A DNA stretch of 64,000 nt from contig NZ_LR656166.1 of the NCBI RefSeq assembly GCF_902168435.1, positions 292,363 to 356,362 on the forward strand, in the 5' to 3' direction. Below the pieces are notes generated by a model. It was not told where the DNA came from, did not search any database, and was given only the letters and a program-made list of their open reading frames with translations. The position numbers and the translations under genes are program-made. This document shows, one piece after another, positions 22,761 through 57,613 of this stretch. The number at the start of each line of letters is the position of its first letter. Position 1 is the stretch's first letter. This DNA comes from Bacillus marasmi. Its GTDB lineage: Bacteria > Bacillota > Bacilli > Bacillales > Cytobacillaceae.

Positions 22761-24239
22761 TTAATTCGGTAATATTGAAAACCTATAAATTATTTTAGGA
22801 ATTCCGCTTTTATCTACCTCAATTCGCTCGACGAACTGATGGAGCAGTTCCTCTGTTACGTCATCAAATGGTAAAAAACGGTTAATCGAATTCCGAAGGT
22901 TTTCAATACGTACTAAAAATTCATCATGTCGGAGTGAGGCTTCAAGCCCACTCCTTTTTATATTCAATTCATTTATCCGTCCCTGATTTTCATCAGCAAC
23001 TTCCCGGTATTCTTCATGGGTGATTTGTTTTTCTGCAAGCATCTCAAGGAAACGTTTCTTTTTTGCTTTAGAAGCTTTAATCTCATTTTCAATGTTGATT
23101 AAAATTTGAGTAACTTGCTTTTGCTTCTTTTGAGCATCTATGGCTAGGTTATTTAGGTATTCCTTATCATTAATAACTTGAGCCATTTTTTTAATATCAG
23201 AAAGGATTGTTTCTTTTAAATCCTTTTCTTTTATCGTTCTTTGAGTGCAAGCGATTTTCCCATGACGAGCGTAACTCCCGCAAATATAACCAATTCGATT
23301 CTGCCGGTACCACATGCCTGTTCCACAATCAGAACAATATAAGACATTCGTAAAAAGATGTTTTTTTACTTTTGGATGATTTTTTTTGCGGCTTTTCATT
23401 AGCTCTTGAACGGCATCAAACATTTCATGTGAAATAATTGCAGGGTGAGTGTTCTTTACAACAATTTGGTTTTCTTCAGGAACACTGTGTCTGGACTGGG
23501 AGGTAACACTTCTAGTAGTCTCCCTTCCTTGAACTAAATCACCTGTATAATGTGGATTACTTAGTATGGTTTTAATAGTGGAACCATGCCAAAAACGACC
23601 TGCATTGCTCTTCTCTGCTACCTGAGAGGGTGTTGGGTATCCCTTTTTGGAAAGAGAACGAGCAATAGAATCGAAACCCTTTCCATTCAAATATAATTCG
23701 AAAATGCTCTTAACCACTTCAGGTGTATTATCATCTGCAAAGATAAGTTTCTTATCAAATACTTTATATCCATAGGGAGCATTTGAACCGTGAAAATCTC
23801 CTCTTTTGGCATTGGTATTTAGAGCAGCCTTGATACGCTCAGAAGTACGCTGTGATTCTTGTTCATATACCCATGCATATAAGCCGAACATATGAATATT
23901 GCCCTCAAGTGAATTAATCGCATTATCAAAGGTGATGATGTGGATATTATGCTTTTCAGCAATATCCTTTATTTCGTATGAAAGCTTCCCATTCCTTGCT
24001 AGTCGCGATAGTTCCTTTGAAAGGATGACATCAAACTTATGTTGCTTTGCGTCCTCAATCAATTGCCGCAAGTTTTCCCGCTTTTTATCTTTTGTTCCTG
24101 ATTCCACATTAATATAAAAACGAAACAAATCCCATCCTTTCTCCACGATAATGTTGTAAAAGAACCGCTGCTGATTTTCCAATGAGGTTTTCTGTTCTTC
24201 CTTATCAGTCGATACACGAATGTATACTGCACATTTCAA
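22761..24239 (-). CDS. Large serine recombinase
   Basis: A 492-aa site-specific recombinase. The resolvase-type catalytic domain spans about residues 1-150 (YIRVS with nucleophile S10, then SRLARN). The recombinase domain follows (NAPYGYKV to NPHYTGDLVQG, about 155-265), then a zinc ribbon (CSDCGTGM and CGSYARHG, about 300-345) and a long coiled coil (about 365-445). TTG at 24239 follows GGGAG. Enzymes of this class integrate and excise phages and islands. Its position at the junction between ordinary genes and the defence cluster suggests it moved part or all of it (inference). It ends intact. Confidence 0.93.
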   Translation of the reverse strand: MKCAVYIRVSTDKEEQKTSLENQQRFFYNIIVEKGWDLFRFYINVESGTKDKKRENLRQLIEDAKQHKFDVILSKELSRLARNGKLSYEIKDIAEKHNIHIITFDNAINSLEGNIHMFGLYAWVYEQESQRTSERIKAALNTNAKRGDFHGSNAPYGYKVFDKKLIFADDNTPEVVKSIFELYLNGKGFDSIARSLSKKGYPTPSQVAEKSNAGRFWHGSTIKTILSNPHYTGDLVQGRETTRSVTSQSRHSVPEENQIVVKNTHPAIISHEMFDAVQELMKSRKKNHPKVKKHLFTNVLYCSDCGTGMWYRQNRIGYICGSYARHGKIACTQRTIKEKDLKETILSDIKKMAQVINDKEYLNNLAIDAQKKQKQVTQILINIENEIKASKAKKKRFLEMLAEKQITHEEYREVADENQGRINELNIKRSGLEASLRHDEFLVRIENLRNSINRFLPFDDVTEELLHQFVERIEVDKSGIPKIIYRFSILPN

Positions 24240-25585: not shown

Positions 25586-26950
25586 TTGGTTAATTACCAA
25601 TGGAAACGTGGTAATTTAGTAGAATATTTTGAAAGGCTAAGTAAAATAAAATCAATTCGAATTGCAACAGCTTACTTTTCTGAGTTTGGTTTAAACTTAT
25701 TAAAAGATATAGTCAATAAAAATAAATTACCTAAATCAAAGGTCGTTATTTTTTTATCAACTGAGTTTAGTAACACTTCCCCTGTCTTTCTGTTGAAAGA
25801 ATTAAGTAATATCGCAAATGTCTTTATTGTGGACTCTTTACAATTACATGCCAAGGTTTACCTAGTGGAAAAGGAAGATGGGGATTTCGAACTTATTCAC
25901 GGTTCTGCTAATTTAACTCAAGGTGGATTTCAAAGAAACTTAGAGTTTATGAGCTATCATGAAGGAGATAAACATAACGTAGATAGGATACTCCTGTTTT
26001 TTGATTATTGTAAGAATAATGCTAGTTTAGTAGATAGTATAATTATAGATTATTATAAGGAAATTGAAGCGGAACTATTAAAATTAAATAACTTACAAAA
26101 AAATATTAGGAAAAAGCTAAATCGAAGAATTACAAATGGGGATTCATTTGAGAGGGATGAGTATGATTTAACTAAGCATTATTTTACTTATGAAGATTAT
26201 GAATCTCTATTCCATAGAAATGCTATTTTAAATAATAACGAAATTAAAGAAAGACGAAAGTTAATTCGAGATAAATTGGCAAGCATCCACAAGTTATTAA
26301 AAAAACATGTAAATTTATTAGATTTGCATGAACATTGGAAGTTGAATAATTTAACATCCGGAATTGAACCAAATTATTTTAACCATAATCGAGTTTCTTG
26401 GATAGGTGTGCGTTATGGGAAAACAGAGCAGGAAGTAAAGCAGTTAAATGCGTTTTTATCTCCTTCAAGAGGAAGTTATACATCATCTGATGAATATATG
26501 GGATTTCAAAAACATGGTTGTATCCAATTTTGTTTAGTTAGCAATGGTTTTGAAATAGTTCTTTTTCATTCTGTCGCTAATGATGCTGTGGATAGGGGAA
26601 CTATGCATGATATTATTAACCAACCTGATAAAGTGAAAATAGAAAGTATTATTAGAGAAATTGCAAAATTAAAGGGAAAAGGATTTACATGGTATATAAC
26701 CGATGCAAAGAACGATAGAACAATAGCAAGTTTTTCCTTTGACAAGAATGAAGCAGAAGATTTTATTGGTTTTTATAAGAAATATGATAAGGCAGGTTAT
26801 GAATCTTTCTGTAGCTATTTACTATCACCTAATAGTGATATATTAAAAGACAGAATCACTCTTGCAAAGTTTACACTTAAGAAGATAAGACAGCTTTTGC
26901 CATTATATCAATTAATTACTTTTAGAAATAAAGTTACAACTAAGAATTAA
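25586..26950 (+). CDS. Phospholipase D-like (HKD) nuclease family protein
   Basis: A 454-aa protein. One HxK motif (LHAKVYLVEK, H88 and K90) followed by HGSANLTQGGF gives a single PLD half-site, as in dimeric PLD nucleases (Nuc, BfiI type). The remaining 300 residues are charged and mostly helical, with no recognised domain. TTG at 25586 follows AAGGGGGGA. It shares an operon with the channel-like membrane protein. A cytoplasmic nucleic-acid nuclease or sensor role is inferred. Confidence 0.75.
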   Translation: MVNYQWKRGNLVEYFERLSKIKSIRIATAYFSEFGLNLLKDIVNKNKLPKSKVVIFLSTEFSNTSPVFLLKELSNIANVFIVDSLQLHAKVYLVEKEDGDFELIHGSANLTQGGFQRNLEFMSYHEGDKHNVDRILLFFDYCKNNASLVDSIIIDYYKEIEAELLKLNNLQKNIRKKLNRRITNGDSFERDEYDLTKHYFTYEDYESLFHRNAILNNNEIKERRKLIRDKLASIHKLLKKHVNLLDLHEHWKLNNLTSGIEPNYFNHNRVSWIGVRYGKTEQEVKQLNAFLSPSRGSYTSSDEYMGFQKHGCIQFCLVSNGFEIVLFHSVANDAVDRGTMHDIINQPDKVKIESIIREIAKLKGKGFTWYITDAKNDRTIASFSFDKNEAEDFIGFYKKYDKAGYESFCSYLLSPNSDILKDRITLAKFTLKKIRQLLPLYQLITFRNKVTTKN

Positions 26951-26973
26951 AATTGCAGTTACAATCTAATCTA

Positions 26974-27003
26974 AAAAGGACAAGTAATGTATCTTGTCCT
27001 TTT
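26974..27003. terminator. Bidirectional terminator between convergent operons
   Basis: AAAAGGACAAG pairs perfectly with CTTGTCCTTTT around an 8-base loop. Confidence 0.85.
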
Positions 27004-27030
27004 AAGTTTTAGCAATAAAATAATTAGCTT

Positions 27031-27801
27031 TTAGAAAAAAGAATTTTCGATAAATGTTAAGACCTGATTTATCGGGATAACCCACATACTCCCAGCATTT
27101 TTTTCTCCATTTGATAAGACTCCGAAACACTTATAAGGTATCAGCCCCTCTGTTATAGTGTAAGCAAAAGAACCGCTCATACCATTAAATACAGGGACAT
27201 TAACAACATCACCATTTTCATCAATTCCTGTAATTGCTGCATCTAGTTCAATCATATCTATATCTTTATCATAGCCTTTAGCAAATGTACCGTAAGGGAA
27301 AGTGGTAATTCCAATTATTTTTTTATCATAATCAATAATAGACCGCTCTCCAGGGAAGCCATGTAGGAGGACGTTATTACAAACACTTTCAAGATAATTG
27401 ACAGGTTCTGTCTCTAGTTTTTCATCTGTTACAAAATTTTTGGGGTGAAATCGAGCTACGTCAGTATTCGGTATTTCAAATGCAGCCAAATCAATATGTT
27501 TATCTTCAGCCTGATTTATTAAAACCGCTTTTGCTGTACCATCAGACACAATAGGTACAACAATTCTCTCTAGCCTCTCTTCATAGGGTATATCTTTAAC
27601 TTCATGATAATTTGTTACAACAAAAAATTTCTCTCTAAACTTTAAAAACCCTCCAGAACCTAAAAAGAAATAACGGTAATCCCCATATTCAGGGGAATCG
27701 CCTAATATACGGCAAAGGTATGGACCTGAAATGTCTTTGAAGTGTTTAAACTCTTTTAAAATAAAATCATCATTTTTATCAGGTATCTCTTTCCAACTCA
27801 T
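27031..27801 (-). CDS. Trypsin-like serine protease
   Basis: A 256-aa cytoplasmic protein with no signal peptide. The chymotrypsin-fold triad is visible: H66 in VVTNYHEV, D104 in HIDLAAFEI, and S209 in FNGMSGSFAY, with GSGGF near 48-52 before the histidine. Similar cytoplasmic trypsin-like proteases occur in prokaryotic defence and conflict loci, where they can be activated to cut host or partner proteins. It is the last gene of a three-gene reverse-strand set (glycosylase, nuclease, protease), 63 bases after the nuclease gene. Target unknown. Confidence 0.8.
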   Translation of the reverse strand: MSWKEIPDKNDDFILKEFKHFKDISGPYLCRILGDSPEYGDYRYFFLGSGGFLKFREKFFVVTNYHEVKDIPYEERLERIVVPIVSDGTAKAVLINQAEDKHIDLAAFEIPNTDVARFHPKNFVTDEKLETEPVNYLESVCNNVLLHGFPGERSIIDYDKKIIGITTFPYGTFAKGYDKDIDMIELDAAITGIDENGDVVNVPVFNGMSGSFAYTITEGLIPYKCFGVLSNGEKNAGSMWVIPINQVLTFIENSFF

Positions 27802-27864
27802 AATCTATAATACCTACCTTTTTTTATGTACTAGTATTAGCTACTCTTTCTTCTAGAAAAATCA

Positions 27865-28332
27865 TTACACTTTGCGGTAAATATGTTCATTTAATATTTT
27901 CCACCATCGAAATGATTTTTTTATCCCTGGAACTCTTCCTTGTTTTAAGGAATTTGCATCCAGGGCTTTCTTTAATGATGGGTAATCAATTACCGACAAG
28001 CTTGCTAAATTAAAATTATCATCAAGCTTGATTGCAACTAAATAGTTCCAGTTTTCATTAAACTTAATGGGTGTCGTTGAACCAGCCTTGTTTTCTTTTG
28101 TGATTGTCTTTACTGAATATTTTTCGCTCCCAATACAAAAGTCATAATCTGCTTGATTGGTCGTACTTGTGGGAATAATTGATAAATCGGGAAACTGCTG
28201 TTTAAAATAAACAATTGCGTAATACTCTCCGATTCGTCCTACAATGTTATCATTGCTGGGAATTTTTTTTGAGTCTAGCCAGCTATGAATTCTTCTTCTT
28301 GTTTTGGCATATTCGTTTATAATTTCACACAT
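27865..28332 (-). CDS. PD-(D/E)XK-like small protein
   Basis: A 155-aa protein. E36 in RIGEYYAI, D62/D64 in NQADYDFCI and the SVK strand (K75) form the E-D-xVK series of restriction-endonuclease-like folds. It has no recognition domain, so it may need a partner or act as a DNA-binding scaffold. No family name is certain. It lies between the glycosylase gene (35 bases) and the protease gene (63 bases), on the same strand. Confidence 0.65.
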   Translation of the reverse strand: MCEIINEYAKTRRRIHSWLDSKKIPSNDNIVGRIGEYYAIVYFKQQFPDLSIIPTSTTNQADYDFCIGSEKYSVKTITKENKAGSTTPIKFNENWNYLVAIKLDDNFNLASLSVIDYPSLKKALDANSLKQGRVPGIKKSFRWWKILNEHIYRKV

Positions 28333-28367
28333 TTCTTTTCTCCAGTAAACTTTTAAGGTTGCTCTAA

Positions 28368-28868
28368 CTATGAATATTTCTTGTGTTCTTTATTTAATAT
28401 TTCAACAAGACGTTGCCACCATTTTATATCCCAATATTTACTAGCTGCGCCTGAAGTAGAAGGAGCAACAAAAAGCCTAGTGTTATTAATTAATTCCTTT
28501 TGTAATCCATATGCAACTTTTTTTCTCCCTAGATAGACCTTGGCAGCTTCTTTGCCATTAAAGCAAACATATTTTGGTTGATTTATTTCAATTAATTCTT
28601 CAAACCTAGCTAAATCATATGCATCCTCATTTAACTCCCTGTCATTGCCGCTTTCCTCTTTAACTAAGTCGGTTAACCCCAAATTAAATTTTAACAAGTC
28701 CATGTATTGATTTGGTTTCAGTTGTAATGGGGTAAGACCTACTTGATGTATGGCACTCCAGAACTTGTTGTTTGGGGATGCATAGTAAAAACCGACTTGT
28801 GCAGATTTATTACCAGCAGCTGTTCCACAAAATACAATATCAAGGTTACTTTTTATTACATCCTTCAG
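28368..28868 (-). CDS. Uracil-DNA-glycosylase-superfamily protein (Mug-like)
   Basis: About 166 residues. FCGTAAGNKSA near 13-23, ASPNNKFWSAIHQVGLTP near 30-47, GLTDLV, FNGKEA and APSTSGAASKYWD match mismatch-specific glycosylases, which excise damaged or wrong bases. The Mug motif GINPG reads GTAAG, so the usual catalytic Asn is Ala, as in some UDG branches. No ATG, GTG or TTG lies at the expected N-terminus; AAGGGGGG sits 7 bases before an in-frame CTG (28868-28866), preceded by ATA. A longer frame to an ATG at 28967 crosses a promoter-like region. It heads the glycosylase/nuclease/protease set. Confidence 0.75.
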   Translation of the reverse strand: MKDVIKSNLDIVFCGTAAGNKSAQVGFYYASPNNKFWSAIHQVGLTPLQLKPNQYMDLLKFNLGLTDLVKEESGNDRELNEDAYDLARFEELIEINQPKYVCFNGKEAAKVYLGRKKVAYGLQKELINNTRLFVAPSTSGAASKYWDIKWWQRLVEILNKEHKKYS

Positions 28869-29131
28869 TATATTACCCCCCCTTACCCATTTAATTATAT
28901 AACATAATATGGTTTTACTATGGTAATATTTTACTAGATATCCTAATTCCAGACCGATTATTAACATAACGATACCATATCAAGAAGTGCGAAATTTTCG
29001 ATTCGAATTAAGTTATAGCAATGGTACACTAGCCATTTTTACCTATTAAAAATGGGTTTAGGGTACATAAAGAACAAGAGGAACATTGGAAAAATAAATT
29101 AGGGAAGTAGAAAAATAAAGGAGTGTCAGAT

Positions 29132-30217
29132 ATGGAGCCATCTTTCTGCCAATTCATAGAGTCGTTCTTATCTCAACGAAGGCAATTGGGATTTACGTTA
29201 GATGAATTAGAAGAATACGTCCTAGGTCAAACCCAAAACATGAATACCTATATTGATAGAGGCGGTAGCGCTCAATTAAAAAAGGACATTCTTTTATTCG
29301 AAGAGGAATCCAAAATCACGCCTGTTAAATCCAAAATAAAAGAGATACATCGCGTATTATCGCTCCCAAATCATTGGAGAAAGAATAAAGAACTGACAGA
29401 AGAAACCTGGGCTAGGTCGTATGTTCTCACTAAAATGACCAAACTGGACCTAAAAAATTTCATCCAGAATCCAGAAAATCAAACGGCTCTCAACAAAGAC
29501 CGAATAGATGCGATTTATTCTTTTTTGGAATCACCGAATCGGAAATTAGTGTCAGCAGAGGAACGGATGTATGAATTGTTTCAAAAAGAGAAATGGTTAT
29601 TGCCGGAACCGAATGGGGAAAACGGACAAAGCTTTTTATCAAAAATAAAAATTAGTTTGGATGATTTGAAAGCTAAAAAATTCCCTGAACCCATCCCATA
29701 CGAAACAAGAAATCGAATGCCGTTATCCGAGGTACAAACTGTTCTAATTACAGAAAATAATTCATTTTACCATTCGGTCAGAAGGACCCTCGAAGTACAA
29801 GAGGTCATAGCAGGTATTCCTGTGGATATGATAGTGTACGCCAGAGGAAAGCAAACTATTGCCAATTTAGAATATTTGTATGCACTGTTCGAGCAGCCAA
29901 CCCAAAAACAATACTACTACGTTGGGGACCTTGACCCTGAAGGCTATAGTATTTTTGCTCAAGTAAGACGAAAATACGATGATTTGTCGATTAACATAGC
30001 CAAAAACATCTACCTGTGGATGTTACGAGAAGAACCGAACCCTCCAGCGGTGGATAAAGGTCAACGGAAGAATCGAGAGGATTTCCAATTGTTCCTCCAC
30101 CAATTTAATGAAATAGAGAATGCAATGGAACGAGCCAAGCTTGAAACCATGTGGAAAGAGAACAAACGAATTCCGCAAGAAGTACTGAATTATGAGAAGC
30201 TAACAAGAAAGAAGTGA
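29132..30217 (+). CDS. jetD: Wadjet protein JetD, TOPRIM nuclease subunit
   Basis: A 361-aa protein. The N-terminal half is helical (DUF3322-like arm). The C-terminal half has a TOPRIM-type core: TENNSFYHS with the metal-binding Glu, VYARGKQ, and GDLDPEGYS with the Asp pair. JetD cuts circular plasmid DNA that the JetABC loop extruder has tested. ATG at 29132 lies 8 bases after AAAGGAG; the GTG at 29123 overlaps that site. jetA overlaps its stop by 4 bases. Here jetD is the first gene, an order that I recall for the non-type-I Wadjet groups. Confidence 0.88.
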   Translation: MEPSFCQFIESFLSQRRQLGFTLDELEEYVLGQTQNMNTYIDRGGSAQLKKDILLFEEESKITPVKSKIKEIHRVLSLPNHWRKNKELTEETWARSYVLTKMTKLDLKNFIQNPENQTALNKDRIDAIYSFLESPNRKLVSAEERMYELFQKEKWLLPEPNGENGQSFLSKIKISLDDLKAKKFPEPIPYETRNRMPLSEVQTVLITENNSFYHSVRRTLEVQEVIAGIPVDMIVYARGKQTIANLEYLYALFEQPTQKQYYYVGDLDPEGYSIFAQVRRKYDDLSINIAKNIYLWMLREEPNPPAVDKGQRKNREDFQLFLHQFNEIENAMERAKLETMWKENKRIPQEVLNYEKLTRKK

Positions 30218-31728
30218 ACAAAATGCTGAATCAAGATATATGGGATGGGTACGAGAGTCGAATGCGACTATTAAATCCATTCTTTTCGTTCGGAAAAGGG
30301 ATACAACTTGGTCCACATTTAAATCCATACATTGAAAATATCCTTTTGGCGGTTTTACTTGAATTGTTCTACCGCGAAGTCCGAAACAATGACGCGAGAA
30401 CGGAACGGGACATTGTGGAAATCGTTCAAGAGGTGCTAAAGGAAATGAAATTGGAAGCCTCAGAAAAAGACTCGGAGCGGCTCGTTACCGGATTGTTATA
30501 TTCCAATCCGCAGACTCTAGAAGCCTTTCAAGGAAAATTCTATTCAGTCAAACATCGAACCTTTGAGGTTCACCAGTTTAAATATTTGATTCCGGACTTA
30601 GAAACGATGGGCGATAATGCTCCTTCCATCCATTATAAATTATCGGACGACGCCCAGTTCATACTGTTTTCGAGCCGAGAAATCACGTCCGAGCTATCCA
30701 TTTCATTGGAGCAGCTATATATGATTCAGTTGTTGAAAAAAGGAAACATCGAAGGGGTTTTAAAACAAACGGATTTTTTATTACAACGTGTCCGCCAACT
30801 CATTGCAAAAGAAACTGCATATGGAAGAGAAATTCTTCGGGAGCCTAAGATAATCCTTCGAGAAGGATTTGATGATAGAAGTAAACGAGAGCAAGAAATA
30901 CGGAAACAGTTTCAGGAGGAAGATGAGAACTTCCGACATATGCATATGTTATTGTTCCGAATTGAAGAGAAAAACGAAGGACTGTACGACGCCGAGGCAA
31001 AGATAAAAATGAATGAGATTCGAGACCGCCTCAATCAGACAACGATTAAGCATGCGGAATTCAATACGATGGTCACAAGAAATATTGCGCTCATCCTCGA
31101 TATCCGAACAAATCGACCGGATTTATTGCTGCGAAAGTCATCCAAACGATACAAAGAAGATGTGTGGGAAAAGTTGATACGGGTGGAAGGGGTTCCGGAT
31201 GAACACATCTTACAGGAAATCCTGAACCCTTTATTTTCTCCACAATCACCCGTCTTGTTTTCTCTGGATAGAGTTTGGGCAAAACAGCGGGTTCTAACAG
31301 AAAAAGTAGTGACTACTCAACCTGTGGAACAAGAAGTCTATGAAATTAAAACCTTTGAATATGTGTTGCGTTGGGAAAATATATTAGATAAATGGATACC
31401 GATACTCGAAGAATTATTGAAACACCGGACTTTTTCCCTTCATTCCCTTGAAAGCCTAGAAGGTTGGTCAAAGGATGCAGTAGAACTTTGGTCGCAATTT
31501 ACAAAAGAGCGGTTCACGGTGCCCGTCAAGGTCTTTACGAATCAATCGTACAAAGATGAGCGTGAAGAATTCATTAGAAGAGCCATTCTTCGAAATCCCA
31601 AATACGCCGTGTTAGAGGGAAGTGTTTTTTATGTAGATAAACACTACAGTGAAACCATGCGTTACAACAATTTCGTTTTGATAACAGATGGGACGCTCCG
31701 ATTGAAGTTAGCGCAGGAAGGAGAGTAA
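30214..31728 (+). CDS. jetA: Wadjet protein JetA (kleisin-like subunit)
   Basis: A 504-aa largely helical protein. The N-terminus (LNPFFSFGKGIQLGPHLNPYIENILLAVLLELFYREVRNN region) resembles the winged-helix part of MukF-like kleisins, with coiled coils in the middle. In Wadjet, JetA bridges the SMC subunit JetC and dimerises the complex. GTG at 30214 overlaps the jetD stop; an ATG nine bases later is possible. Identification rests on gene order with jetD, jetB and jetC plus family resemblance (DUF5716 type). Confidence 0.82.
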   Translation: MNKMLNQDIWDGYESRMRLLNPFFSFGKGIQLGPHLNPYIENILLAVLLELFYREVRNNDARTERDIVEIVQEVLKEMKLEASEKDSERLVTGLLYSNPQTLEAFQGKFYSVKHRTFEVHQFKYLIPDLETMGDNAPSIHYKLSDDAQFILFSSREITSELSISLEQLYMIQLLKKGNIEGVLKQTDFLLQRVRQLIAKETAYGREILREPKIILREGFDDRSKREQEIRKQFQEEDENFRHMHMLLFRIEEKNEGLYDAEAKIKMNEIRDRLNQTTIKHAEFNTMVTRNIALILDIRTNRPDLLLRKSSKRYKEDVWEKLIRVEGVPDEHILQEILNPLFSPQSPVLFSLDRVWAKQRVLTEKVVTTQPVEQEVYEIKTFEYVLRWENILDKWIPILEELLKHRTFSLHSLESLEGWSKDAVELWSQFTKERFTVPVKVFTNQSYKDEREEFIRRAILRNPKYAVLEGSVFYVDKHYSETMRYNNFVLITDGTLRLKLAQEGE

Positions 31729-31731
31729 GGA

Positions 31732-32463
31732 ATGGAACAAGAAACAACCTTTAAAGAAGGGCTGAGAATCTATTTTTCCTTGGTGAAAAATGGTTATATA
31801 CAAACCAAAGAGGAGGAAGGGATACTTTATTTTTCGGATGCCAGAGTACGAGAGTTTGTCCGTATGTGTGCCACTCAGTCTGGCACTGAAATATTAGAAG
31901 CAGCAGAAAATATACATTTGGTTACAGCCGGAAGCGGGTCTCTTTTTGAAACCCCTTACCATCTCTTGAAAGAAAAAATAGGGTTTCAAAACCAAGACGA
32001 ATTCCATCTTTTGTGTTTGATAGCTCTTGTCTATTTAGCCGAAGTCGACGGGAATTTAGTTATTCGAAGCAGTGCGGAGCGGGATGGCGTCTCTTATACG
32101 AAACTCGCCAAAGAAGTAGATAGAGTCTTAGAAGACTGGCAAGAGAAGATGAAAGAAAATCCAAAGTGGGAAGAACAATGGGGCATCAACATCAAAACAG
32201 CAGCAGAATTGTACCTGAATAAGAATTTGCGAGACGAAAAAGTCAGTCGATTGGTTCCCTCGTTTCGGACCAAATGGGGCATTATACATAAAATCATGAC
32301 CTTTTTAAAAGAGCAAAAACTGGTCCGTTTTTTTGAGTCCAGCGACAATCTTTTGGTATATCCAACTGATATTTTGTATGAACGACTGGAATTTGCCTAC
32401 CGAGAGGATACCCGGTATGAGAATATCAAAAAAATGATACTCTCTGCGAAAGGAGCACTATAA
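31732..32463 (+). CDS. jetB: Wadjet protein JetB (kite subunit)
   Basis: A 243-aa winged-helix-like protein at the position where MukE/DUF4194-type kite subunits occur. It lies 3 bases after jetA and 3 bases before jetC, with GGAAGGAG upstream of its ATG. Kite dimers bind the kleisin JetA and help clamp DNA. The segment SFRTKWGIIHKIMTFLKEQKL region is typical of a C-terminal winged helix. Confidence 0.8.
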   Translation: MEQETTFKEGLRIYFSLVKNGYIQTKEEEGILYFSDARVREFVRMCATQSGTEILEAAENIHLVTAGSGSLFETPYHLLKEKIGFQNQDEFHLLCLIALVYLAEVDGNLVIRSSAERDGVSYTKLAKEVDRVLEDWQEKMKENPKWEEQWGINIKTAAELYLNKNLRDEKVSRLVPSFRTKWGIIHKIMTFLKEQKLVRFFESSDNLLVYPTDILYERLEFAYREDTRYENIKKMILSAKGAL

Positions 32464-32466
32464 GAA

Positions 32467-35400
32467 ATGGCAGCCATAGCAGAAATCCGAGTGGTCAATT
32501 TGCATTACGCCAAACAAAATAACTATTATGATGATTTAACTTTCCACTTTTTAACGGAAGCCGGCATTCCAAGTAATGGAGCCATTACGTTCCCAAACGG
32601 AAATGGGAAGGGTGCATTGTTACAAGCGATAAACCAAATCTTTCTGCCAGAGACCGAATGGGGGAATAACAATGAAAATACCCCGTTGCATTACTTTATG
32701 AAAGGGAACAAGTTTGCCCCTTATACATTTTACATTATGATTGAATGGTGGATTTCTTATACTCGCCGCCTTATGACAGGGATTGTTATGACCGCAGAGG
32801 AAGTCACAGACCCTAAACCAGAGTATCGAATCAAGTATCGATTATTCGGGAAAAAGTACGTCAAAAACGAATACACTATTCAACGAGTGCCGGTATGGGA
32901 TAAGGAAAACAACACGGCAGTGGACTTTTCTGTATTTGAAAACCATGTTAAAGAACAAAAGGGGATGTTTTCTTATGCACCGAGTGGAAAAGGGAAATTC
33001 TTTAAAGAGTGTCGGACGCATGGAGTCTTTGAAAGCGATTGGGCAGAACTAAAGAAAATCAACCGCTATGAAGCAGGAATTGGTCCTTATTTTGAACAGA
33101 AAAAAGCCACAAAAAATGAAACGTTTTTCCGTAATATGTTAATTCCTTCGATAGTGGACCGAAATGAAATCATCAACGGGATTGATATCCAATCTCAACT
33201 TAGCCAACAATTTAAAGATAGTGCATCGATTGCCAATAATTTACCGCATTTGTTAGCTAGAGAGAAGTACCATCGTGAGATATTAGAAATGGTCTCACAC
33301 TTTGATGCTCCCATCAAAAACTATGAATTTGCCGAAAAGCAAATAATTGAGCATAAACGAACCGGAGAAAATATTTTAGGGAATATAGACGAGAAACTCC
33401 AAGAGTTGGAAAATCAAAAGGAGAGACTTAATAACCAGACTTCGGAACTGGAAAATCAACGGGATGAAAACGAATGGGAAAAAGATAATTTAAAATATGT
33501 GAAATCACTACGAGATTTACGAGAGAAGCAAGAAGAACAGGAACAAGCGGATTTAGACCAGAAAGATGCTGCTTTTGATAAAGAAACTGCTGATAATAAG
33601 CAACGAGGAGCAGAAAGGAAACTACTGGTTAAAAAGTATCAAGTAGAAGAGAAAAAATATCAAGCTATTGAGGCTGACATTAAGCGTTTAGAACAATCAG
33701 AGGAAATGATAGAAATTTCAACAAAGGAACGAGCCATCAAGCAGACCATAGAAGAACAATGGGCTGAAAACAAAGAGGCCTTGCTACAGGTTCAAGCGCA
33801 GTATCAAGCATTTACCCAACAAAAGAAAAAGGAAGCTACTAATCTTGTCAAGGAAAGCCAAGAATTAGCTACGGCGATAGGCAGGTTAGATGTTCAACTC
33901 TCAACTGTGACAAATCGTACCAAAGAGTTTGAAACTCTACTCGGAAAAGCAAAGGAGAAATTCGGTTATTCGGTTCATGTCAAACCAGAACATGCAAAAG
34001 CGTCACTCCTAAAAGAAATAGAAGCTAATCAGTTCTTGCAAAGGGAAGCTGAAATTGAAGAGCCTTCATTACTAGCCAAGCAAGATAAACTTGCTGAAGA
34101 AGTTTGGACACTAAATAACGAGAAAAACTCGATTAAGAAACAGCAAAGAGAAGTAAAAGAACGACTACCTCAGCAACAAAGGCAGCAGTTTGAGTGGATG
34201 AATCAAGTTTCAAGGCTCTTAAAATTGACTCCAGATGAGTGTCTAGCCACGTATGATTGGCTCCAATCTGTTCTTCCTGCCCTCCAAGATTTGCGAGAAA
34301 AAAGAGAGAAACGAGTTAGAGAATTGACGGTGGAGGTTTTAAAGTTGGAGCAACAACTCCAAATATCAAATGAGGACCGCTTTCTTTTCAATGCCGATAT
34401 TCAACGAATTAGTGAAAAACTGGCTCACTACAATGTTTACCACCAGACCGGTTCCGAATTTCTTATGGAGTTAAAGGAAGAGGAGAGAGAACGATATAAT
34501 CGACAGTTCTCTAGTCTTAAATACAGCATCATTGTTCAAACCCAAAACTTAGAAGAATTAAGACGAAAACTCCAGTTCCACGATGAACTATTGCAAAGTC
34601 CGGTGAATCTTGTAGAAGCGAGACAACTGGACCAGTTATCCGATAGCACCTTTCTATTTTGGAACCAGGCAGATGAGTTTGTTGAACAACCGGAAAAATG
34701 GAAGGGATTCCTACAAGCCTCTCAAGACGAAAAGGTAAAATTAGAAGAGGAAATTCAAAAAGTCACTCAAGAAATAGATGAAATTCAAGTTCTTATTCAA
34801 GATGTGCAACGCTTTCCACAAACAGATAGTGCAGATTTTCTTAAACAGGAACTTATCCGGTTGAATAATAGATTCGAGCAATTAGAAAATGAGCTCACCA
34901 CAATGGGGTCGAAACAAACCGAACTCAAAAAGAAAATTGAAGATAACAAAATAAAACAAAAAAACGCAGGACTGATATTAAAAGAAAAGGAAAAGGACTG
35001 GCGAGAACTAGAAATTTTTATTGGGCGTCTTCATCAACATCAAGAGGATGTAACCCTTGAGTCCACTCTTTCAACGGAGCTATCACAAAAACAGTCAAAG
35101 CTAGAAGCACTCACCCAACAAGCAACCGATAGAGATGAAGAGTTAAAGGAGTGGCAAACGTATTATGCCGACTGGAAAGCGCGTATGCTCCAAAAAGTGG
35201 ACCGTATTGCCAAAATTATTCCAAATGTGGAGTTCCCAAAAGAATTAAGGGTAGAGGCAGGAATGGATGAAATCTCTACACCTAGCCTGCCGGATACCTT
35301 GTTTGACAGTATTATGGAGACTGTGGTTCAGCATGATGAGTTAACTCATACATTAGAACAAAAATCTTCTAAAATCGCTGAGTTAAAAGGAATGAATAAG

Positions 35401-36999
35401 GTCAATATCGGTCTCGTGCAAGATGCTAAAGAAGAGTTATTGAAATGCGACCCAGAGGGATTGTCGCTTTCGGAGCCGGTTGAACCGCTTGACTTCTTAA
35501 AACAACAGAAAGAAAGAGCAATCACAAATGCCCAGCACGCAGCAAAGAGGCTGCAAAGTGCAGAAAAAACGCTCGAATCGCTGACAGCGGTGGTAGGAAG
35601 AATTGAAGAGCAAGTAAATGGGCTGATAGAAGATATCCGGCAAAACCACAAATGTTCTGTAGATGACTGGGAGAATGTTGATTTAGAAGTAAAGGGAAAA
35701 GAAATTGCCGAAGAATCGAGACGGATTCATGATGAATTGAGTGCCCAAGACAAAGCATTGAAAGAACTTCAAACCATGCAGAACACATTAGAAAAGGCAC
35801 GACCGACGATTGCCGTTCATATTGGAGCTCCTCCTTCGTTGATGTTTTCCATCAAGGAAAATATCCATGGGTTAGTTGAAACCATCAACCAAGTGGTGGA
35901 AGATTGGAGCGGAGAATTTGAAAAAAGAAAAAGAAGACGAACAGAAGCGTTTAATGCATTAAATCGAATCAAGAGAAAGAGCCTGGAAGACATCAAAGTA
36001 TCCAACTGGGACGAAAAAACCAAACAAAATCTTCTTGAACAATATAACGCTATGGACGTAGCCAATCTCCCTTCCACCGTGGAAATGATAGAAGGAATTC
36101 GGGCATTGTCCAAGTATGAACTAGAAGTGATGGAAGAAGATAAGAAAAAAGGCGTTGAGGCTAGAGAACGATGGGTGAGGTATGCTGCTCAGTTTTCTTC
36201 TAATATCGCCAAAGCCATTATAGAAATGGCAGAGTCCATGGAACTCAAAAATCGTGGCGGATTTACCTTTCCGCTTGTGAAAATCAGAAACAAACGCAAA
36301 CTATCTACCAAAGCAGATGATTTTCAGGTTGCATTGGAGCGCTACTTCGATGAATCTATTAAAAAGGTGAATCAAATGAACATACCAGTGGATTCAATGA
36401 CCATTCGGGAAATCAATCAAATTATTAACATCGCCGATATTGTGTACACCGCATTGGGGAATCAATATCCGTTATTTGATATTTATTATCTCGATAAAGA
36501 CAATGTTTTTATGTACGACTCTCCAAGAACTGAATATTACGTGGATTGGGAAGTGCTAAATGAAGGGTCACTGACCAATCCGGCAGGAAGCGGTGGACAG
36601 AAGGTCGCAGGTAGGACGATTATGTTCTTGATGATGATGTCTCATAAACGGAAAGTTGCTGATAAAGACTGGCAGTTCTTTTATATGGACAACCCGTTTG
36701 CTAATGCTATTTCTGCTAGTGTGATAGACCCGATTTTCGCTATTACCGAAGCGTTGAATTATCAATTAATTGTTGTGGCTCCGCCTGAATTAATGAAAGC
36801 CGAGATTTCAATGAAGTTTCCATCTTTACATGATTTGTCATTCGAAAAAGAACCAACAGGGAAAAGTAGAGTCTTAGTTACGAGAAGACAATATTTATCG
36901 CCTAGCGGGTTTATGACAGAAGCATTTGAGGATGAAGTAATTGGCTTTTCAGCGGTAAAAAACACGGATGTGGAGCAAGGTGAATTTATCTTAGATTAA
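32467..36999 (+). CDS. jetC: Wadjet protein JetC (SMC/MukB-like ATPase)
   Basis: A 1510-aa SMC-like ATPase. The N-terminal Walker A-like FPNGNGKGALL (K48) has Gly where Ser or Thr is usual. Two long coiled coils flank a hinge region (roughly residues 290-600 and 740-1250). The C-terminal head carries the signature NPAGSGGQKVAG and Walker B-like FFYMDNPFA, with Asn in place of the usual Glu. JetC extrudes DNA loops using ATP, so JetD can cut small circles. AAAGGAG precedes the ATG. It is the last gene of the operon; a strong terminator follows at 37116. Confidence 0.9.
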   Translation: MAAIAEIRVVNLHYAKQNNYYDDLTFHFLTEAGIPSNGAITFPNGNGKGALLQAINQIFLPETEWGNNNENTPLHYFMKGNKFAPYTFYIMIEWWISYTRRLMTGIVMTAEEVTDPKPEYRIKYRLFGKKYVKNEYTIQRVPVWDKENNTAVDFSVFENHVKEQKGMFSYAPSGKGKFFKECRTHGVFESDWAELKKINRYEAGIGPYFEQKKATKNETFFRNMLIPSIVDRNEIINGIDIQSQLSQQFKDSASIANNLPHLLAREKYHREILEMVSHFDAPIKNYEFAEKQIIEHKRTGENILGNIDEKLQELENQKERLNNQTSELENQRDENEWEKDNLKYVKSLRDLREKQEEQEQADLDQKDAAFDKETADNKQRGAERKLLVKKYQVEEKKYQAIEADIKRLEQSEEMIEISTKERAIKQTIEEQWAENKEALLQVQAQYQAFTQQKKKEATNLVKESQELATAIGRLDVQLSTVTNRTKEFETLLGKAKEKFGYSVHVKPEHAKASLLKEIEANQFLQREAEIEEPSLLAKQDKLAEEVWTLNNEKNSIKKQQREVKERLPQQQRQQFEWMNQVSRLLKLTPDECLATYDWLQSVLPALQDLREKREKRVRELTVEVLKLEQQLQISNEDRFLFNADIQRISEKLAHYNVYHQTGSEFLMELKEEERERYNRQFSSLKYSIIVQTQNLEELRRKLQFHDELLQSPVNLVEARQLDQLSDSTFLFWNQADEFVEQPEKWKGFLQASQDEKVKLEEEIQKVTQEIDEIQVLIQDVQRFPQTDSADFLKQELIRLNNRFEQLENELTTMGSKQTELKKKIEDNKIKQKNAGLILKEKEKDWRELEIFIGRLHQHQEDVTLESTLSTELSQKQSKLEALTQQATDRDEELKEWQTYYADWKARMLQKVDRIAKIIPNVEFPKELRVEAGMDEISTPSLPDTLFDSIMETVVQHDELTHTLEQKSSKIAELKGMNKVNIGLVQDAKEELLKCDPEGLSLSEPVEPLDFLKQQKERAITNAQHAAKRLQSAEKTLESLTAVVGRIEEQVNGLIEDIRQNHKCSVDDWENVDLEVKGKEIAEESRRIHDELSAQDKALKELQTMQNTLEKARPTIAVHIGAPPSLMFSIKENIHGLVETINQVVEDWSGEFEKRKRRRTEAFNALNRIKRKSLEDIKVSNWDEKTKQNLLEQYNAMDVANLPSTVEMIEGIRALSKYELEVMEEDKKKGVEARERWVRYAAQFSSNIAKAIIEMAESMELKNRGGFTFPLVKIRNKRKLSTKADDFQVALERYFDESIKKVNQMNIPVDSMTIREINQIINIADIVYTALGNQYPLFDIYYLDKDNVFMYDSPRTEYYVDWEVLNEGSLTNPAGSGGQKVAGRTIMFLMMMSHKRKVADKDWQFFYMDNPFANAISASVIDPIFAITEALNYQLIVVAPPELMKAEISMKFPSLHDLSFEKEPTGKSRVLVTRRQYLSPSGFMTEAFEDEVIGFSAVKNTDVEQGEFILD

Positions 37000-48291: not shown

Positions 48292-49677
48292 TCAAGTGGT
48301 TTCAATGATTTTTGCGATGTAAGTGTTATTTAACCAAAAACACTGTTTCGTAATGACTTGCCCATTTGGTAGAACTACTTTATCAGACCCATCTTTTCCT
48401 TTTGGACGGATATGTGTTACGCCATTAAATCCAATTTTAGGCAAGTTATTGGTTTCAATCATTTTATTTCCATGTTTCTTGTATTCAATTTTTATCCCTT
48501 GTATAATAACATTATTTACCTGTTCCCAAAGTTGTTTAATTTCATTCTCGATGGTGGTTACAGGCATATTCCATAGTTTTATTCCTTTAAGATATAATTG
48601 ACGAAGTGGATTTTCTTTCTTTGTTTCTTTATATTCAAATACAACGAGTAGAAATTTTGTTTCCAAAAAGCGCTGACGTATGTAGCTATCTTCCCATGAT
48701 TCGCTTACCCATTGATGAAAATCTATATTTTCAAACGACATATGCTGCTCGGGTTTTCCGTTTGGCTCTAATCTAATAGTTTTAAATTGAATATTAGCTT
48801 TTGCAAATTCATCAATATCATCTAATCTCGTTCCTTTTATACCAAGTAAAGAGCTTACTATTAATGGAATAAAACTTTTGGATTTGGGGTTATAGGTTAT
48901 ATCGAATATTTTTGCAATTTCTTTATCAGTTTTACCGGTAAATGGTGTGAATCTTTCTTTAAGTAGTTCTTGGAGGGATTTCTGTTTTAACTCATCCACT
49001 TTGGTAAAACTAATAAGTTCTTCATTATTAATGTGTTTTCTCACCAATGCAGTCATATAAGATTGTTTAAGAGAAAATGCTCTTTGCATGGCTAAAGTAT
49101 CCGAAAAGGGTTGTTTTCTTAACGAACCCTTATTTGCCCCTTTAGGACATGCACCAAGGTAGTTAGTATCACTTTCTGATAGAAGATGTGCATTTCCGGA
49201 TTTAATTTTTGAAACGATTATTTCCCAATCATTCTTGATGATTTCTAAATCAGCTTCAGGATAAGTAAAAAGAATACTTTTGAAAATACGATAATCCTCA
49301 CGATTTTTTTCTGGAAGCCATTCATAAAACATAAGTAGTAGTTTTGCATTCTTTCTCCAAAAACTTGATGATTTAAATGATTCATTTACTTCTTCAAAAT
49401 AATTAATAATATTTAAAACTAATCTTTCCTTAGCTGAAATTGTGCCGTTTTTGTTATGCTTAAAAGGGGTTACTTTCAGTTCAATTCCTAAGTTATCAAA
49501 GTCTGGTCTTGCTTCTGAATTAACTGTGTATCCAAAAAAACTTTCTTCAATTACTTGTCCAAGACTTCCTTTGGATTTTTTATTATTTAGCCTATTCGTC
49601 TCATCTATTTCCCCGAATGTTTTTCCTTCGGCCTCATGTGCTTTTCTAAGTAAGTGATCCGTTGTTAAATATTCCAT
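48292..49677 (-). CDS. Sau3AI/MutH-family type II restriction endonuclease
   Basis: A 461-aa protein, close to the length of Sau3AI. The N-terminal MutH-like catalytic half has GSLGQVIEESFFG (38-49) and RPDFDNLGIELKVTP, supplying D59 or D61, E66 and K68. The C-terminal half is a second related domain used for allosteric DNA binding. Cleavage at GATC is inferred from the family. ATG at 49677 follows CGGGAGG. The TGA stop (48294-48292) consists of the first three bases of the IS21 end; the pre-insertion gene ended one codon later (GAA TAA), so only a terminal Glu is lost. Confidence 0.88.
   Translation of the reverse strand: MEYLTTDHLLRKAHEAEGKTFGEIDETNRLNNKKSKGSLGQVIEESFFGYTVNSEARPDFDNLGIELKVTPFKHNKNGTISAKERLVLNIINYFEEVNESFKSSSFWRKNAKLLLMFYEWLPEKNREDYRIFKSILFTYPEADLEIIKNDWEIIVSKIKSGNAHLLSESDTNYLGACPKGANKGSLRKQPFSDTLAMQRAFSLKQSYMTALVRKHINNEELISFTKVDELKQKSLQELLKERFTPFTGKTDKEIAKIFDITYNPKSKSFIPLIVSSLLGIKGTRLDDIDEFAKANIQFKTIRLEPNGKPEQHMSFENIDFHQWVSESWEDSYIRQRFLETKFLLVVFEYKETKKENPLRQLYLKGIKLWNMPVTTIENEIKQLWEQVNNVIIQGIKIEYKKHGNKMIETNNLPKIGFNGVTHIRPKGKDGSDKVVLPNGQVITKQCFWLNNTYIAKIIETT
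48295..48299. repeat. Target-site duplication, right
   Basis: AGTGG directly right of the IS21 end, identical to 45470-45474. It encodes part of the last two codons of the restriction enzyme gene. Confidence 0.85.
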
Positions 49678-49912
49678 TGTTACCTCCCGTATGTTCATTT
49701 GATAATAATCGCCAATCCAATTAATTAGTGAATAAATTCCAAAAAATATAGAACGATCGTTCTTTTTGTGATACATTTATTTATTATGAAGTATTATCTT
49801 TGATTAATTATGTTTAGCAATTCTTAATTTTCACTAGTTTTTGTAAATCACTGAAAAAATGTTGATATTGTGATAAGATTATTTTTTATATTAAATGGTA
49901 TTAGTATTAAGG

Positions 49913-49941
49913 TTGATCTTTTATTCAATTTTTATTATAAT
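49913..49941 (+). promoter_or_regulatory. Sigma-A-type promoter of the methyltransferase gene
   Basis: TTGATC (49913-49918) and TATAAT (49936-49941) are separated by 17 bp, 39 bases before the start codon. It lies in the 303-base divergent gap of the restriction-modification pair, which holds no other gene. Confidence 0.75.
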
Positions 49942-49980
49942 ACTTCTTAGGTATATTCAATACCGAAAGGATGTTCGTGC

Positions 49981-51240
49981 ATGTTGAATGTAATAGAGTT
50001 ATTTGCAGGGGTAGGAGGATTCAGAATCGGACTCGAAAAAACAAAGGGATTTGACGTTGTATGGGGGAACCAGTGGGAGCCTTCTAAAAAGACACAAGAT
50101 GCCTTTAATTGTTACTCGAGAAATTTTGAAGGTCGAGGTATTCATTCGAATGAAGATATTGCGTCTGTTAACGAACAGACACTAAAGGACATAAATGTTG
50201 ACCTCATAGTTGGAGGTTTTCCTTGTCAGGATTACTCTGTTGCTCGAAGTCTATCTGGTGAAAAGGGGATAGAAGGTAAAAAAGGTGTTCTCTTCTGGGA
50301 GATTGTTAGACTAACTGGGGAATTAAATCCTAAATATATTTTACTAGAAAACGTAGATAGGCTACTGAAGTCACCATCTAAGCAGAGGGGCAGAGATTTT
50401 TCGGTTATGTTAGCTGCTTTTAGGGATTTAGGTTATTCTGTTGAATGGCGTGTTATTAATGCAGCGGAATATGGTCAAGCCCAAAGGAGAAGGAGGGTAT
50501 TCATATTTGCTGTCCGAAATGAAAATATGTTTTTGGAAAAAAGAAAGAATGTTGATGATTCTATAATGCTCCAAGCTGAAGGCTTTTTTGCAAAAGCATT
50601 TCCCGTCATTCAAGAAGAAGGCAAGAAGATTCACTACTTTGATTTTAATGATGATATTATTGATATTTCGGAAAAGTTTTCTAAAACTTATTATAATGCA
50701 GGTATTATGAGAGATGGGAAAGTTTATACAGAGGAGCTAATACCGACATTAGAAGAAAATCCTATTACATTAGGTGAAATTCTACAATTGGGTGTAGATG
50801 AAAAATATTATTTAGGTGAAAATGCGATTGCCAAATTTGAATACTTAAAAGGTCCTAAAAAAATCGAAAGAACTTCTGCAAATGGACATAAATATGTTTT
50901 CTCAGAGGGAGGAATGTCTTTTCCGGAACCATTAGATAAACCGGGTAGGACAATGTTAACAAGTGAAGGAACAGTAAATAGAAGTAGTCATGTTGTGGAA
51001 GATTTAGAAACTAAGAGGTTACGTATTTTAACACCTGTTGAGTGTGAGAGACTGAATGGATTTCCAGATAATTGGACAGAAGGAATGTCTGAAAGAATGA
51101 GATATTTCTGTATGGGAAATGCGCTAGTTGTTGGATTAATAGAGCGGATGGGAAATCGTATTTTAGAAATTGAGAACGAAGACAAAGAAGCTTTAGCAGA
51201 AGAACCTCAGCAATTAAGTATAGATAATTATATATTTTAG
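49981..51240 (+). CDS. DNA (cytosine-5) methyltransferase of the R-M pair
   Basis: A 419-aa C5 methyltransferase. Motif I ELFAGVGGFR binds SAM, motif IV GGFPCQDYS holds the nucleophile C82, motif VI is ENVDRLL (E123), motif VIII QRRRRVFI, and motifs IX-X are RILTPVECERLNGFPDNW and MGNALVV. The target domain lies between about 190 and 320. As partner of a Sau3AI-like enzyme it probably methylates the C of GATC (inference). GAAAGGATG precedes the ATG, and a sigma-A promoter lies upstream. The two genes diverge, as is common in R-M systems. Confidence 0.93.
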   Translation: MLNVIELFAGVGGFRIGLEKTKGFDVVWGNQWEPSKKTQDAFNCYSRNFEGRGIHSNEDIASVNEQTLKDINVDLIVGGFPCQDYSVARSLSGEKGIEGKKGVLFWEIVRLTGELNPKYILLENVDRLLKSPSKQRGRDFSVMLAAFRDLGYSVEWRVINAAEYGQAQRRRRVFIFAVRNENMFLEKRKNVDDSIMLQAEGFFAKAFPVIQEEGKKIHYFDFNDDIIDISEKFSKTYYNAGIMRDGKVYTEELIPTLEENPITLGEILQLGVDEKYYLGENAIAKFEYLKGPKKIERTSANGHKYVFSEGGMSFPEPLDKPGRTMLTSEGTVNRSSHVVEDLETKRLRILTPVECERLNGFPDNWTEGMSERMRYFCMGNALVVGLIERMGNRILEIENEDKEALAEEPQQLSIDNYIF

Positions 51241-56906: not shown

Positions 56907-57613
56907 AAACCCATTCAGCAAATTATCGAGTTGATACTTATAAAACATTTAAAAGCAAGATAAAGGGGGGCAAAGATAAGGGAATTGCTCTACGTTCCCA
57001 CTTTGCTGTTGGATTTTATAAAGATGAAGGTGAAAATCAGAAAGGCACTGATCGAAAGGAAAGTATCCGGAATTCTTTTAATTCCCCTTTTCGACCATTT
57101 GTCCTCGCTACTACTTCCATTGGTCAGGAAGGCTTGGATTTTCATTTTTACTGTAGAAAAATAATGCATTGGAATTTACCTTCAAACCCGATCGATTTGG
57201 AGCAAAGGGAAGGGAGGATCAACCGCTTTAAATGCTTGGCAATTCGCCAAAATATTGCATTGAAGTTTGGTGAGCAAATTTCATTCGAAAAAGATATATG
57301 GGAAGAATTATTTGATTTTGCGAAACAAACCTATTCCGGCAGGTATTCAGAACTTATCCCATTTTGGTGTTTACCTGATGATCAGGAGATAAAAATCGAA
57401 AGGATTGTCCCTTTGTATCCAATGAGCAAGGATATAGGAAGCTATCAGAGATTAATAAAAATCCTGTCGCTTTACCGAATTACGCTCGGACAAGCAAGAC
57501 AAGAAGAATTGCTGGAATATCTTCTTGAAAATAGTGATAGCAGTGAGGATCTTAAGGATTTGTTTATTATTTTGAGTCCTTACTATAGAGAAAACTCTAC
57601 AATCATTCTTTAA
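56894..57613 (+). CDS. SNF2-like helicase, C-terminal part (out of frame)
   Basis: The 239-aa frame holds helicase motif V (ATTSIGQEGLDFHFYCRKI) and motif VI (DLEQREGRINRF with its arginine fingers), followed by a helical tail. It is the rest of the helicase lobe 2 and not a separate gene: its TTG start has no ribosome site, and the same frame carries good helix-forming sequence upstream (HIHKNLLE) before it reaches TTG. The gap relative to 54396-56906 is a missing base. Confidence 0.78.
   Translation: MESMKTHSANYRVDTYKTFKSKIKGGKDKGIALRSHFAVGFYKDEGENQKGTDRKESIRNSFNSPFRPFVLATTSIGQEGLDFHFYCRKIMHWNLPSNPIDLEQREGRINRFKCLAIRQNIALKFGEQISFEKDIWEELFDFAKQTYSGRYSELIPFWCLPDDQEIKIERIVPLYPMSKDIGSYQRLIKILSLYRITLGQARQEELLEYLLENSDSSEDLKDLFIILSPYYRENSTIIL

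What the first reader, a model, noticed from the sequence alone, without database searches (positions are those of the whole stretch)
27031..28868. Glycosylase, PD-(D/E)XK-like protein and trypsin-like protease as one operon inside a defence island
Seen: three genes on the reverse strand, 35 and 63 bases apart, encoding a Mug-like glycosylase (motif GTAAG), a small E-D-xVK protein and a cytoplasmic serine protease with an intact H66-D104-S209 triad. Known: glycosylases that attack modified phage DNA, and proteases that activate partner proteins, each occur in immunity. Inferred: base excision on phage DNA could be sensed, with the protease executing a response. I do not know this combination as a named system.
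Basis: partly seen in the sequence, partly recalled or inferred. Interest (0 to 1): 0.75.

Follow-up and report, generated by a model that had tools for sequence, protein, structure and literature searches.

The report
Glycosylase-nuclease-protease operon in defence island
Three neighbouring bacterial genes, for a DNA-base remover, a small DNA cutter and a protein cutter, really sit together inside a cluster of antivirus genes, but the trio turned up in only this one genome among those searched, so it is either a rare new combination of known parts or a lucky neighbourhood.

Summary
Three reverse-strand genes (28868-28368, 28332-27865, 27801-27031; gaps 35 and 63) sit in a defence island with Wadjet III, Gabija, ApeA, a type II RM system and Zac. 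(1) The glycosylase is a second Mug, distinct from the resident one; it lacks the canonical Asn but keeps the Asp93 equivalent of Deinococcus MUG2. (2) The small E-D-VK protein is a distant member of a restriction-enzyme family (PADLOC mREase_II); 8 of 15 distinct relatives examined lie within about 6 kb of RM genes, three directly after Vsr. (3) The third protein has an HtrA-like His-Asp-Ser signature (0 of 100,000 shuffles; otherwise four HtrA-like proteins of this genome among 598 frames), but profile scores are weak and no homologue was found. The trio does not recur: 0 of 16 nuclease loci hold a Mug or this protease, 0 of 51 Mug loci hold the nuclease or protease. I narrowly favour a base-excision restriction module (MUG2 glycosylase plus RM-type nuclease, protease target unknown); chance assembly is almost as likely. 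The protease-gated pro-nuclease model lacks its key feature: no extra loop in the nuclease compared with a relative that has no such protease.

The parts
28368..28868 (-). Gene 1: MUG2-class (Deinococcus-type) mismatch/uracil DNA glycosylase, GTAAG motif, Asp equivalent to DrMug Asp93 in ...EESGND...; apparent CTG start behind GGGGGGG (28882-28876). An in-frame ATG at 28967 would add 33 aa.
   Evidence: Pfam UDG 1e-12; best PDB hit DrMug 2c2p 2.5e-27; alignment and tree; start read
27865..28332 (-). Gene 2: small PD-(D/E)XK-like nuclease (E36, D64, V74-K75), distant member of the PADLOC mREase_II family
   Evidence: PADLOC PDLC03205 3.5e-8; relatives L057, L059, L060 match that model at 1.7e-54 to 7.5e-66; conserved columns
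27031..27801 (-). Gene 3: orphan trypsin/HtrA-like serine protease, H66-D104-S209, no hydrophobic N-terminus by eye
   Evidence: signature test; motifs; weak Trypsin_2 E=0.24; no homologue found
26974..27003 (-). hairpin followed by T, possible bidirectional terminator between gene 3 and the convergent PLD gene
   Evidence: fold -16.2 kcal/mol for the 52-base stretch that holds it; sequence; not listed by the consensus scan
28869..29122 (.). intergenic region between gene 1 and divergent Wadjet jetD, presumed promoter region
   Evidence: position only; the promoter scan of 26800-29300 gave 8 sites against 10.7 expected by shuffling
29123..36999 (+). neighbouring Wadjet type III (jetD, A, B, C); context, not part of the trio
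   Evidence: PADLOC JetD3/A3/B3/C3
25586..26950 (+). neighbouring convergent PLD/NgoFVII-like nuclease gene; context
   Evidence: Pfam RE_NgoFVII 3.6e-8
22761..24239 (-). large serine recombinase to the left; context
   Evidence: Pfam Recombinase 1.5e-27
48292..51240 (.). Sau3AI/MutH-type REase (-) and C5 methyltransferase (+), the only C5-methylating system that I recognised in the window; context
   Evidence: PADLOC REase_II 5.8e-110, MTase_II 7.6e-180; Pfam MutH

Best explanation
The trio is a horizontally acquired DNA-restriction cassette. The MUG2-class glycosylase removes a uracil-like or otherwise non-canonical pyrimidine from invading DNA (candidates: uracil or hydroxymethyluracil DNA of Bacillus phages). 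The small restriction-family nuclease cuts the DNA at or near the abasic or mismatched site, and the protease regulates or adds to the response by cleaving a partner or target not yet known. Shown: the three genes, their families and key residues, operon-like packing, island context, the second Mug being distinct from the resident one, and the frequent RM neighbourhood of the nuclease family. Inferred: horizontal acquisition, substrate, cooperation of glycosylase and nuclease, any role of the protease, and antiphage activity.
For: Tight co-directional packing with a hairpin after the last gene. Defence island with Wadjet III, Gabija, ApeA, RM and Zac. The glycosylase is a second Mug beside the resident GFNPS-type gene (G000:C35; sequence) and falls outside the canonical Mug clade (98/96, 19 rows). 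It keeps the residue that differs between 2c2p and 2c2q (position 93 by counting in the alignment), which PMC5128194 (passages) calls the novel catalytic residue of MUG2, an enzyme active on U:G, U:A and single-stranded U. A similar gene (L105) lies next to an OLD-like ATPase and about 4 kb from PglZ. Nuclease relatives sit in or near RM operons at 8 of 15 distinct places, three directly after Vsr. Brig1 precedent: a UDG-superfamily protein in the vicinity of Wadjet (PMC11078745, passages).
Against: Neither the trio nor a pair of it was found elsewhere (0 of 16 and 0 of 51 loci). The protease has no known homologue. The glycosylase start codon is non-standard, so expression is uncertain. The nearest nuclease relatives (L043, L044, L045, L005) show no RM gene by eye and no glycosylase, and L045 and L005 do not match the mREase_II models at E<=0.01. 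The Asp is missing in Microvirga P0002 and in L106-L108, which otherwise resemble the window gene. No structure prediction was available.
Confidence: 0.36

Rival explanations
1. Chance assembly: three independently acquired defence-island genes that landed side by side. The glycosylase does base-excision repair or stands alone, the nuclease is a solitary restriction remnant, and the protease has its own unrelated role.
For: No recurrence of the trio or any pair in 16 nuclease loci and 51 Mug loci; protease orphan; nuclease relatives have variable neighbours: GIY-YIG, TumE toxin pair, type ISP RM, Vsr. The closest Mug relative by score, L104, has no defence gene that I recognised by eye around it.
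Against: 35- and 63-base gaps, same strand, near-equal G+C (0.345, 0.333, 0.342; flanking genes 0.289 and 0.387), hairpin after the last gene. Few close relatives are available and most Mug loci are short, so the recurrence test has low power.
Confidence: 0.34
2. 5-methylcytosine mismatch-care cassette: in several relatives the nuclease sits beside C5 methyltransferase and Vsr. Here Mug takes the place of Vsr and repairs T:G mismatches from deaminated 5mC made by the island's own C5 methyltransferase; the nuclease is a leftover restriction partner.
For: Vsr directly upstream of the nuclease relative in S. meliloti, R. etli and Rhizobium T1470; methyltransferase beside it in L060, annotated in L063-L065, and read by eye in L062; a C5 methyltransferase at 49981-51240 in this island.
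Against: No methyltransferase in the trio and about 21 kb between them; the MUG2 passages speak of uracil, not thymine (PMC5128194); a resident Mug already exists; the protease is unexplained.
Confidence: 0.15
3. Protease-gated pro-nuclease, as in the nuclease-protease pairs of Hachiman, AVAST and Canu: gene 3 cleaves and activates gene 2, with gene 1 as sensor.
For: Nuclease immediately upstream of a trypsin-like protease, the order described in PMC12799240 (parts 1-3 of 6 read); active-site signature intact.
Against: The nuclease shows no metallo-beta-lactamase match and the protease is not fused to a sensor. The nuclease has no insertion compared with its 50%-identical relative L043 (158 aa vs 155 aa), whose 14 kb locus shows no such protease.
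Confidence: 0.1

Closest known systems
DrMUG / MUG2 class of mismatch uracil DNA glycosylase (PDB 2c2p)
   Same: Closest solved structure (2.5e-27); lacks the canonical Asn, keeps the Asp93 equivalent; outside the canonical Mug clade
   Different: Encoded in a defence island beside a nuclease and protease; substrate unknown; direct grouping with DrMug unresolved in the tree
Brig1 / Brig3 antiphage DNA glycosylases
   Same: A DNA glycosylase gene in a defence island (Brig1 is also of the UDG superfamily and near Wadjet); a small operon
   Different: Mug family; partners are a nuclease and a protease, not BapA; no activity data; no Brig sequence was compared here
PADLOC mREase_II family nuclease of C5-methyltransferase/Vsr restriction operons
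   Same: Gene 2 matches PDLC03205 (3.5e-8) and shares the E and D columns
   Different: No methyltransferase or Vsr beside it; only 19-24% identity to the RM-linked members aligned (L059, L060, L062)
Nuclease-protease pairs of Hachiman, AVAST, Lamassu, DRT and Canu (PMC12799240)
   Same: Nuclease gene immediately upstream of a trypsin-like protease gene inside an immune locus (trypsin-type pairs)
   Different: Different nuclease family, stand-alone protease, no gating insertion seen

Membership tests
MUG2 class glycosylase | UDG-superfamily match by sequence | tested here: met
   Pfam UDG 48.8 bits, cut-off 24.3
MUG2 class glycosylase | Asp93 equivalent instead of the motif-1 Asn | tested here: met
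   SGND aligned with DrMug SGVD; GTAAG vs GINPG/GFNPS
MUG2 class glycosylase | Groups apart from canonical Mug | tested here: met
   Canonical clade 98/96 excludes it; grouping with DrMug itself is unresolved
MUG2 class glycosylase | Uracil excision from U:G, U:A, ssU | not testable with these tools
   needs enzyme assay
mREase_II family nuclease | Match to the family model | tested here: met
   PDLC03205 3.5e-8, residues 19-81 only; a library label without a curated cut-off; relatives L045 and the Vibrio protein do not match at 0.01
mREase_II family nuclease | Catalytic E, D, VK residues (recalled as the PD-(D/E)XK pattern) | tested here: met
   invariant in 5 rows; in 8 rows E and D only, L060 lacks VK
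Type II RM system with Vsr | C5 methyltransferase in the same operon | tested here: not met
   none among ORFs between 25586 and 29123; nearest recognised is 49981-51240
Type II RM system with Vsr | Vsr gene | tested here: not met
   no Vsr match for the trio or its flanking genes scanned; Mug stands there instead
Nuclease-protease pair (HamM/Avs1a type) | Metallo-beta-lactamase nuclease | tested here: not met
   no such Pfam hit for gene 2 at E<=1
Nuclease-protease pair (HamM/Avs1a type) | Protease fused to HamA, Avs1 or LmuA-type partner | tested here: not met
   256 aa, no other domain above cut-off, no PADLOC hit
Nuclease-protease pair (HamM/Avs1a type) | Active-site-blocking insertion in the nuclease | tested here: not met
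   no insertion against L043, whose locus has no such protease; no structure available
Trypsin/HtrA-like serine protease | Ordered His-Asp-Ser signature | tested here: met
Trypsin/HtrA-like serine protease | Profile match above family cut-off | tested here: not met
   Trypsin_2 12.6 bits, cut-off 27.6; not listed; hhalign 22.3 vs best 20.0 of 50 shuffles
Brig-type antiphage glycosylase | Antiphage activity through base excision of modified phage bases | not testable with these tools
   needs plaque and glycosylase assays

The most novel reading that the evidence does not exclude
A new type of base-excision immune system: a MUG2 glycosylase, of a family other than the one that phage Ugi inhibits (recalled), flags uracil- or hmU-type phage DNA, a restriction-family nuclease cuts at the flagged site, and a cytoplasmic HtrA-like protease is switched on by the product to execute or limit the response.
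Probability: 0.1. Interest if true: 0.85.

Novelty: new variant of a known kind. Interest (0 to 1): 0.4.

Why it matters
If the trio works as one system it would couple base excision to a restriction nuclease and a protease, a combination that I did not meet in the paper searches made, and would link the new antiphage glycosylases with classical restriction. Even if not, two points are useful: MUG2-like glycosylases occur in two defence islands (this one, where it is a second, non-resident copy, and L105), and a small nuclease family recurs beside Vsr and C5 methyltransferases.

Tried and rejected
Tried and led nowhere. Protease homologues: none; PDB sequence matches at E 0.08-0.73 are unrelated enzymes. 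The scans use exact 8-residue patterns and so reach close relatives only. Viral hits L003 and L004 are chance matches of one octapeptide in an unrelated phage protein and were dropped. Weak nuclease hits L007-L009 (E 0.005-0.01) and L052-L056 were not followed. Of the 12 plasmid records, six were opened by annotation (H30, H32, H33, H34, H36, H39); a seventh (H31) appears to be locus L058, because its record length equals that of the G805 contig; five were not opened (H35, H37, H38, H40, H41). L059 and L067 are taken as the same plasmid on the same ground, so 16 loci are 15 distinct places. L061 is a weak member (no PADLOC hit). One search opened no further place. The same-genus comparison with the Wadjet gene found it only in the window's own genome (1 of 5), so no empty site was studied.

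Considered and rejected: that gene 1 is ordinary housekeeping Mug (a resident Mug exists and the tree separates them); that gene 2 is a standard RM enzyme with its own methyltransferase (none adjacent); that gene 3 is an exported HtrA (it starts MSWKEIPDKNDDF, no hydrophobic N-terminus by eye).

Papers. PMC12799240: parts 1-3 of 6 of the text read. PMC11078745, PMC13160076, PMC5128194, PMC8150378, PMC13092281: passages only. All others: listing only. None of the ten searches listed a paper that I recognised, by title and start of abstract, as describing a Mug-nuclease-protease trio; no paper held all terms. DefensePredictor (PMC13092281) names a UDG among predicted systems in a figure legend; its partners were not visible to me.

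Full report
What is there. Three reverse-strand genes lie between a convergent PLD nuclease gene (25586-26950) and a divergent Wadjet type III operon (29123-36999). In transcription order they are a glycosylase (28868-28368), a 155-residue protein (28332-27865) and a 256-residue protein (27801-27031). The gaps are 35 and 63 bases. The terminator scan lists no site in either gap, though it lists one inside gene 3 (27699-27678); a hairpin at 27003-26974, not listed by that scan, follows the last gene. The island also carries Gabija, ApeA, a Sau3AI/MutH-type enzyme with a C5 methyltransferase, ZacABC and a serine recombinase.

The glycosylase. It passes the Pfam UDG cut-off and its nearest solved structure is Deinococcus Mug. 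The genome has another Mug on a different contig (37% identical; sequence). In all, 49 of 101 genomes (own included) have a match to the window gene at E<=0.001; the 11 of these that were aligned carry a GxNP motif, as the resident does (three further loci gave no sequence in that script). The window gene reads GTAAG there, without the Asn. It has Asp at the position that is Asp93 in DrMug: the residue differs between 2c2p and 2c2q in the alignment, and counting from its printed start gives 93. A review passage (PMC5128194) names Asp93 as the novel catalytic residue and MUG2 as the class. In a 30-row tree the canonical clade (19 rows, with E. coli Mug and the resident gene) has support 98/96 and excludes the window gene, which lies in an unresolved fork with DrMug, L104, L105, L106-L108 and a Microvirga protein. 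The Asp is kept in L104 and L105 but missing in L106, L107, L108 and the Microvirga protein (kept in 2 of these 6).

The small protein. Its own library match is modest (PADLOC mREase_II, 3.5e-8). One Vibrio plasmid homologue gave an alignment that found three more: Paenibacillus glacialis (50% identity), Saccharibacillus and a proteobacterial MAG. Of these four, the first two Bacilli match the model at 8e-6 and 6e-6, the MAG and Vibrio proteins not at 0.01. Further searches added others; L057, L059 and L060 match at 1.7e-54, 7.7e-56 and 7.5e-66. Sixteen loci (15 distinct places) were examined for context. Eight hold RM genes within about 6 kb: L060 (methyltransferase and TdeIII REase), L062 (methyltransferase read by eye), L063, L064, L065, L066, L067/L059 and L068. 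In L063, L065 and L066 Vsr is the gene directly before it. In the other seven I recognised no RM gene by eye (L005, L043, L044, L045, L057, L058, L061); L043 and L044 have a GIY-YIG gene nearby (in L044 at 21.6 bits, just under Pfam's cut-off) and L045 a TumE toxin gene.

The protease. Profile evidence is weak: Trypsin_2 E=0.24, not listed in the own-genome Trypsin_2 search at E<=1, hhalign 22.3 against a best of 20.0 in 50 shuffles and 11.7-18.9 for five other window proteins. But the ordered signature TNxH, DLA, GxSG was absent from 100,000 shuffles and, among 598 frames, present only in this protein (five copies of the same gene) and in four of the genome's five HtrA-like proteins. I therefore accept a trypsin-like fold, with the caveat that no structure could be predicted. 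No homologue was found in any collection searched.

Do they belong together? A six-frame check found no Mug, no protease match and no trypsin signature in the 16 nuclease loci (212 kb), and no nuclease, no protease match and no trypsin signature in 51 Mug loci (259 kb). The positive controls found the expected gene in 16 of 16 and 51 of 51. Forty-two of the 51 Mug loci reach only about 1.5 kb to each side, and not every Mug match was fetched, so linkage further out would be missed. This result favours chance adjacency; packing, composition and a shared end favour an operon.

Mechanism. The best reading is a restriction module that starts with base excision. The MUG2 enzyme attacks uracil broadly (PMC5128194 passages), uracil-DNA phages of Bacillus exist and carry the UNG inhibitor UGI (PMC8150378 passages), and a glycosylase of another family would escape that inhibitor (recalled, not tested). 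That the nuclease family often sits beside Vsr and C5 methyltransferases suggests work on DNA with modified or mismatched cytosines. The protease step is the least supported. The published nuclease-protease pairs (PMC12799240) share the gene order but not the nuclease family, the fusion or the gating insertion.

Verdict. Known parts in a combination seen once; interest moderate.

Noticed in passing
The Mug part lacks the Asp loop..
   Followed up: partly
   Followed up: partly
L063, L065 (Sinorhizobium and Rhizobium plasmids): Same order in both: CopG regulator, C5 methyltransferase, hypothetical, Vsr, small nuclease relative, with the last genes overlapping..
   Followed up: no
window 28868-28890: Glycosylase seems to start at CTG behind GGGGGGG, with a five-codon ATG...TAA mini-frame overlapping the ribosome site..
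   Followed up: no
window 54396-57613: The ZacC match covers 54396-56906 and stops short of the profile's end (781 of 1019); a further helicase-like frame by eye (56894-57613) follows, so the gene may be split..
   Followed up: no
L043:5522-6474 (Paenibacillus glacialis): The closest nuclease relative overlaps a GIY-YIG gene, a possible two-nuclease pair with transposase-like genes in the same locus..
   Followed up: no
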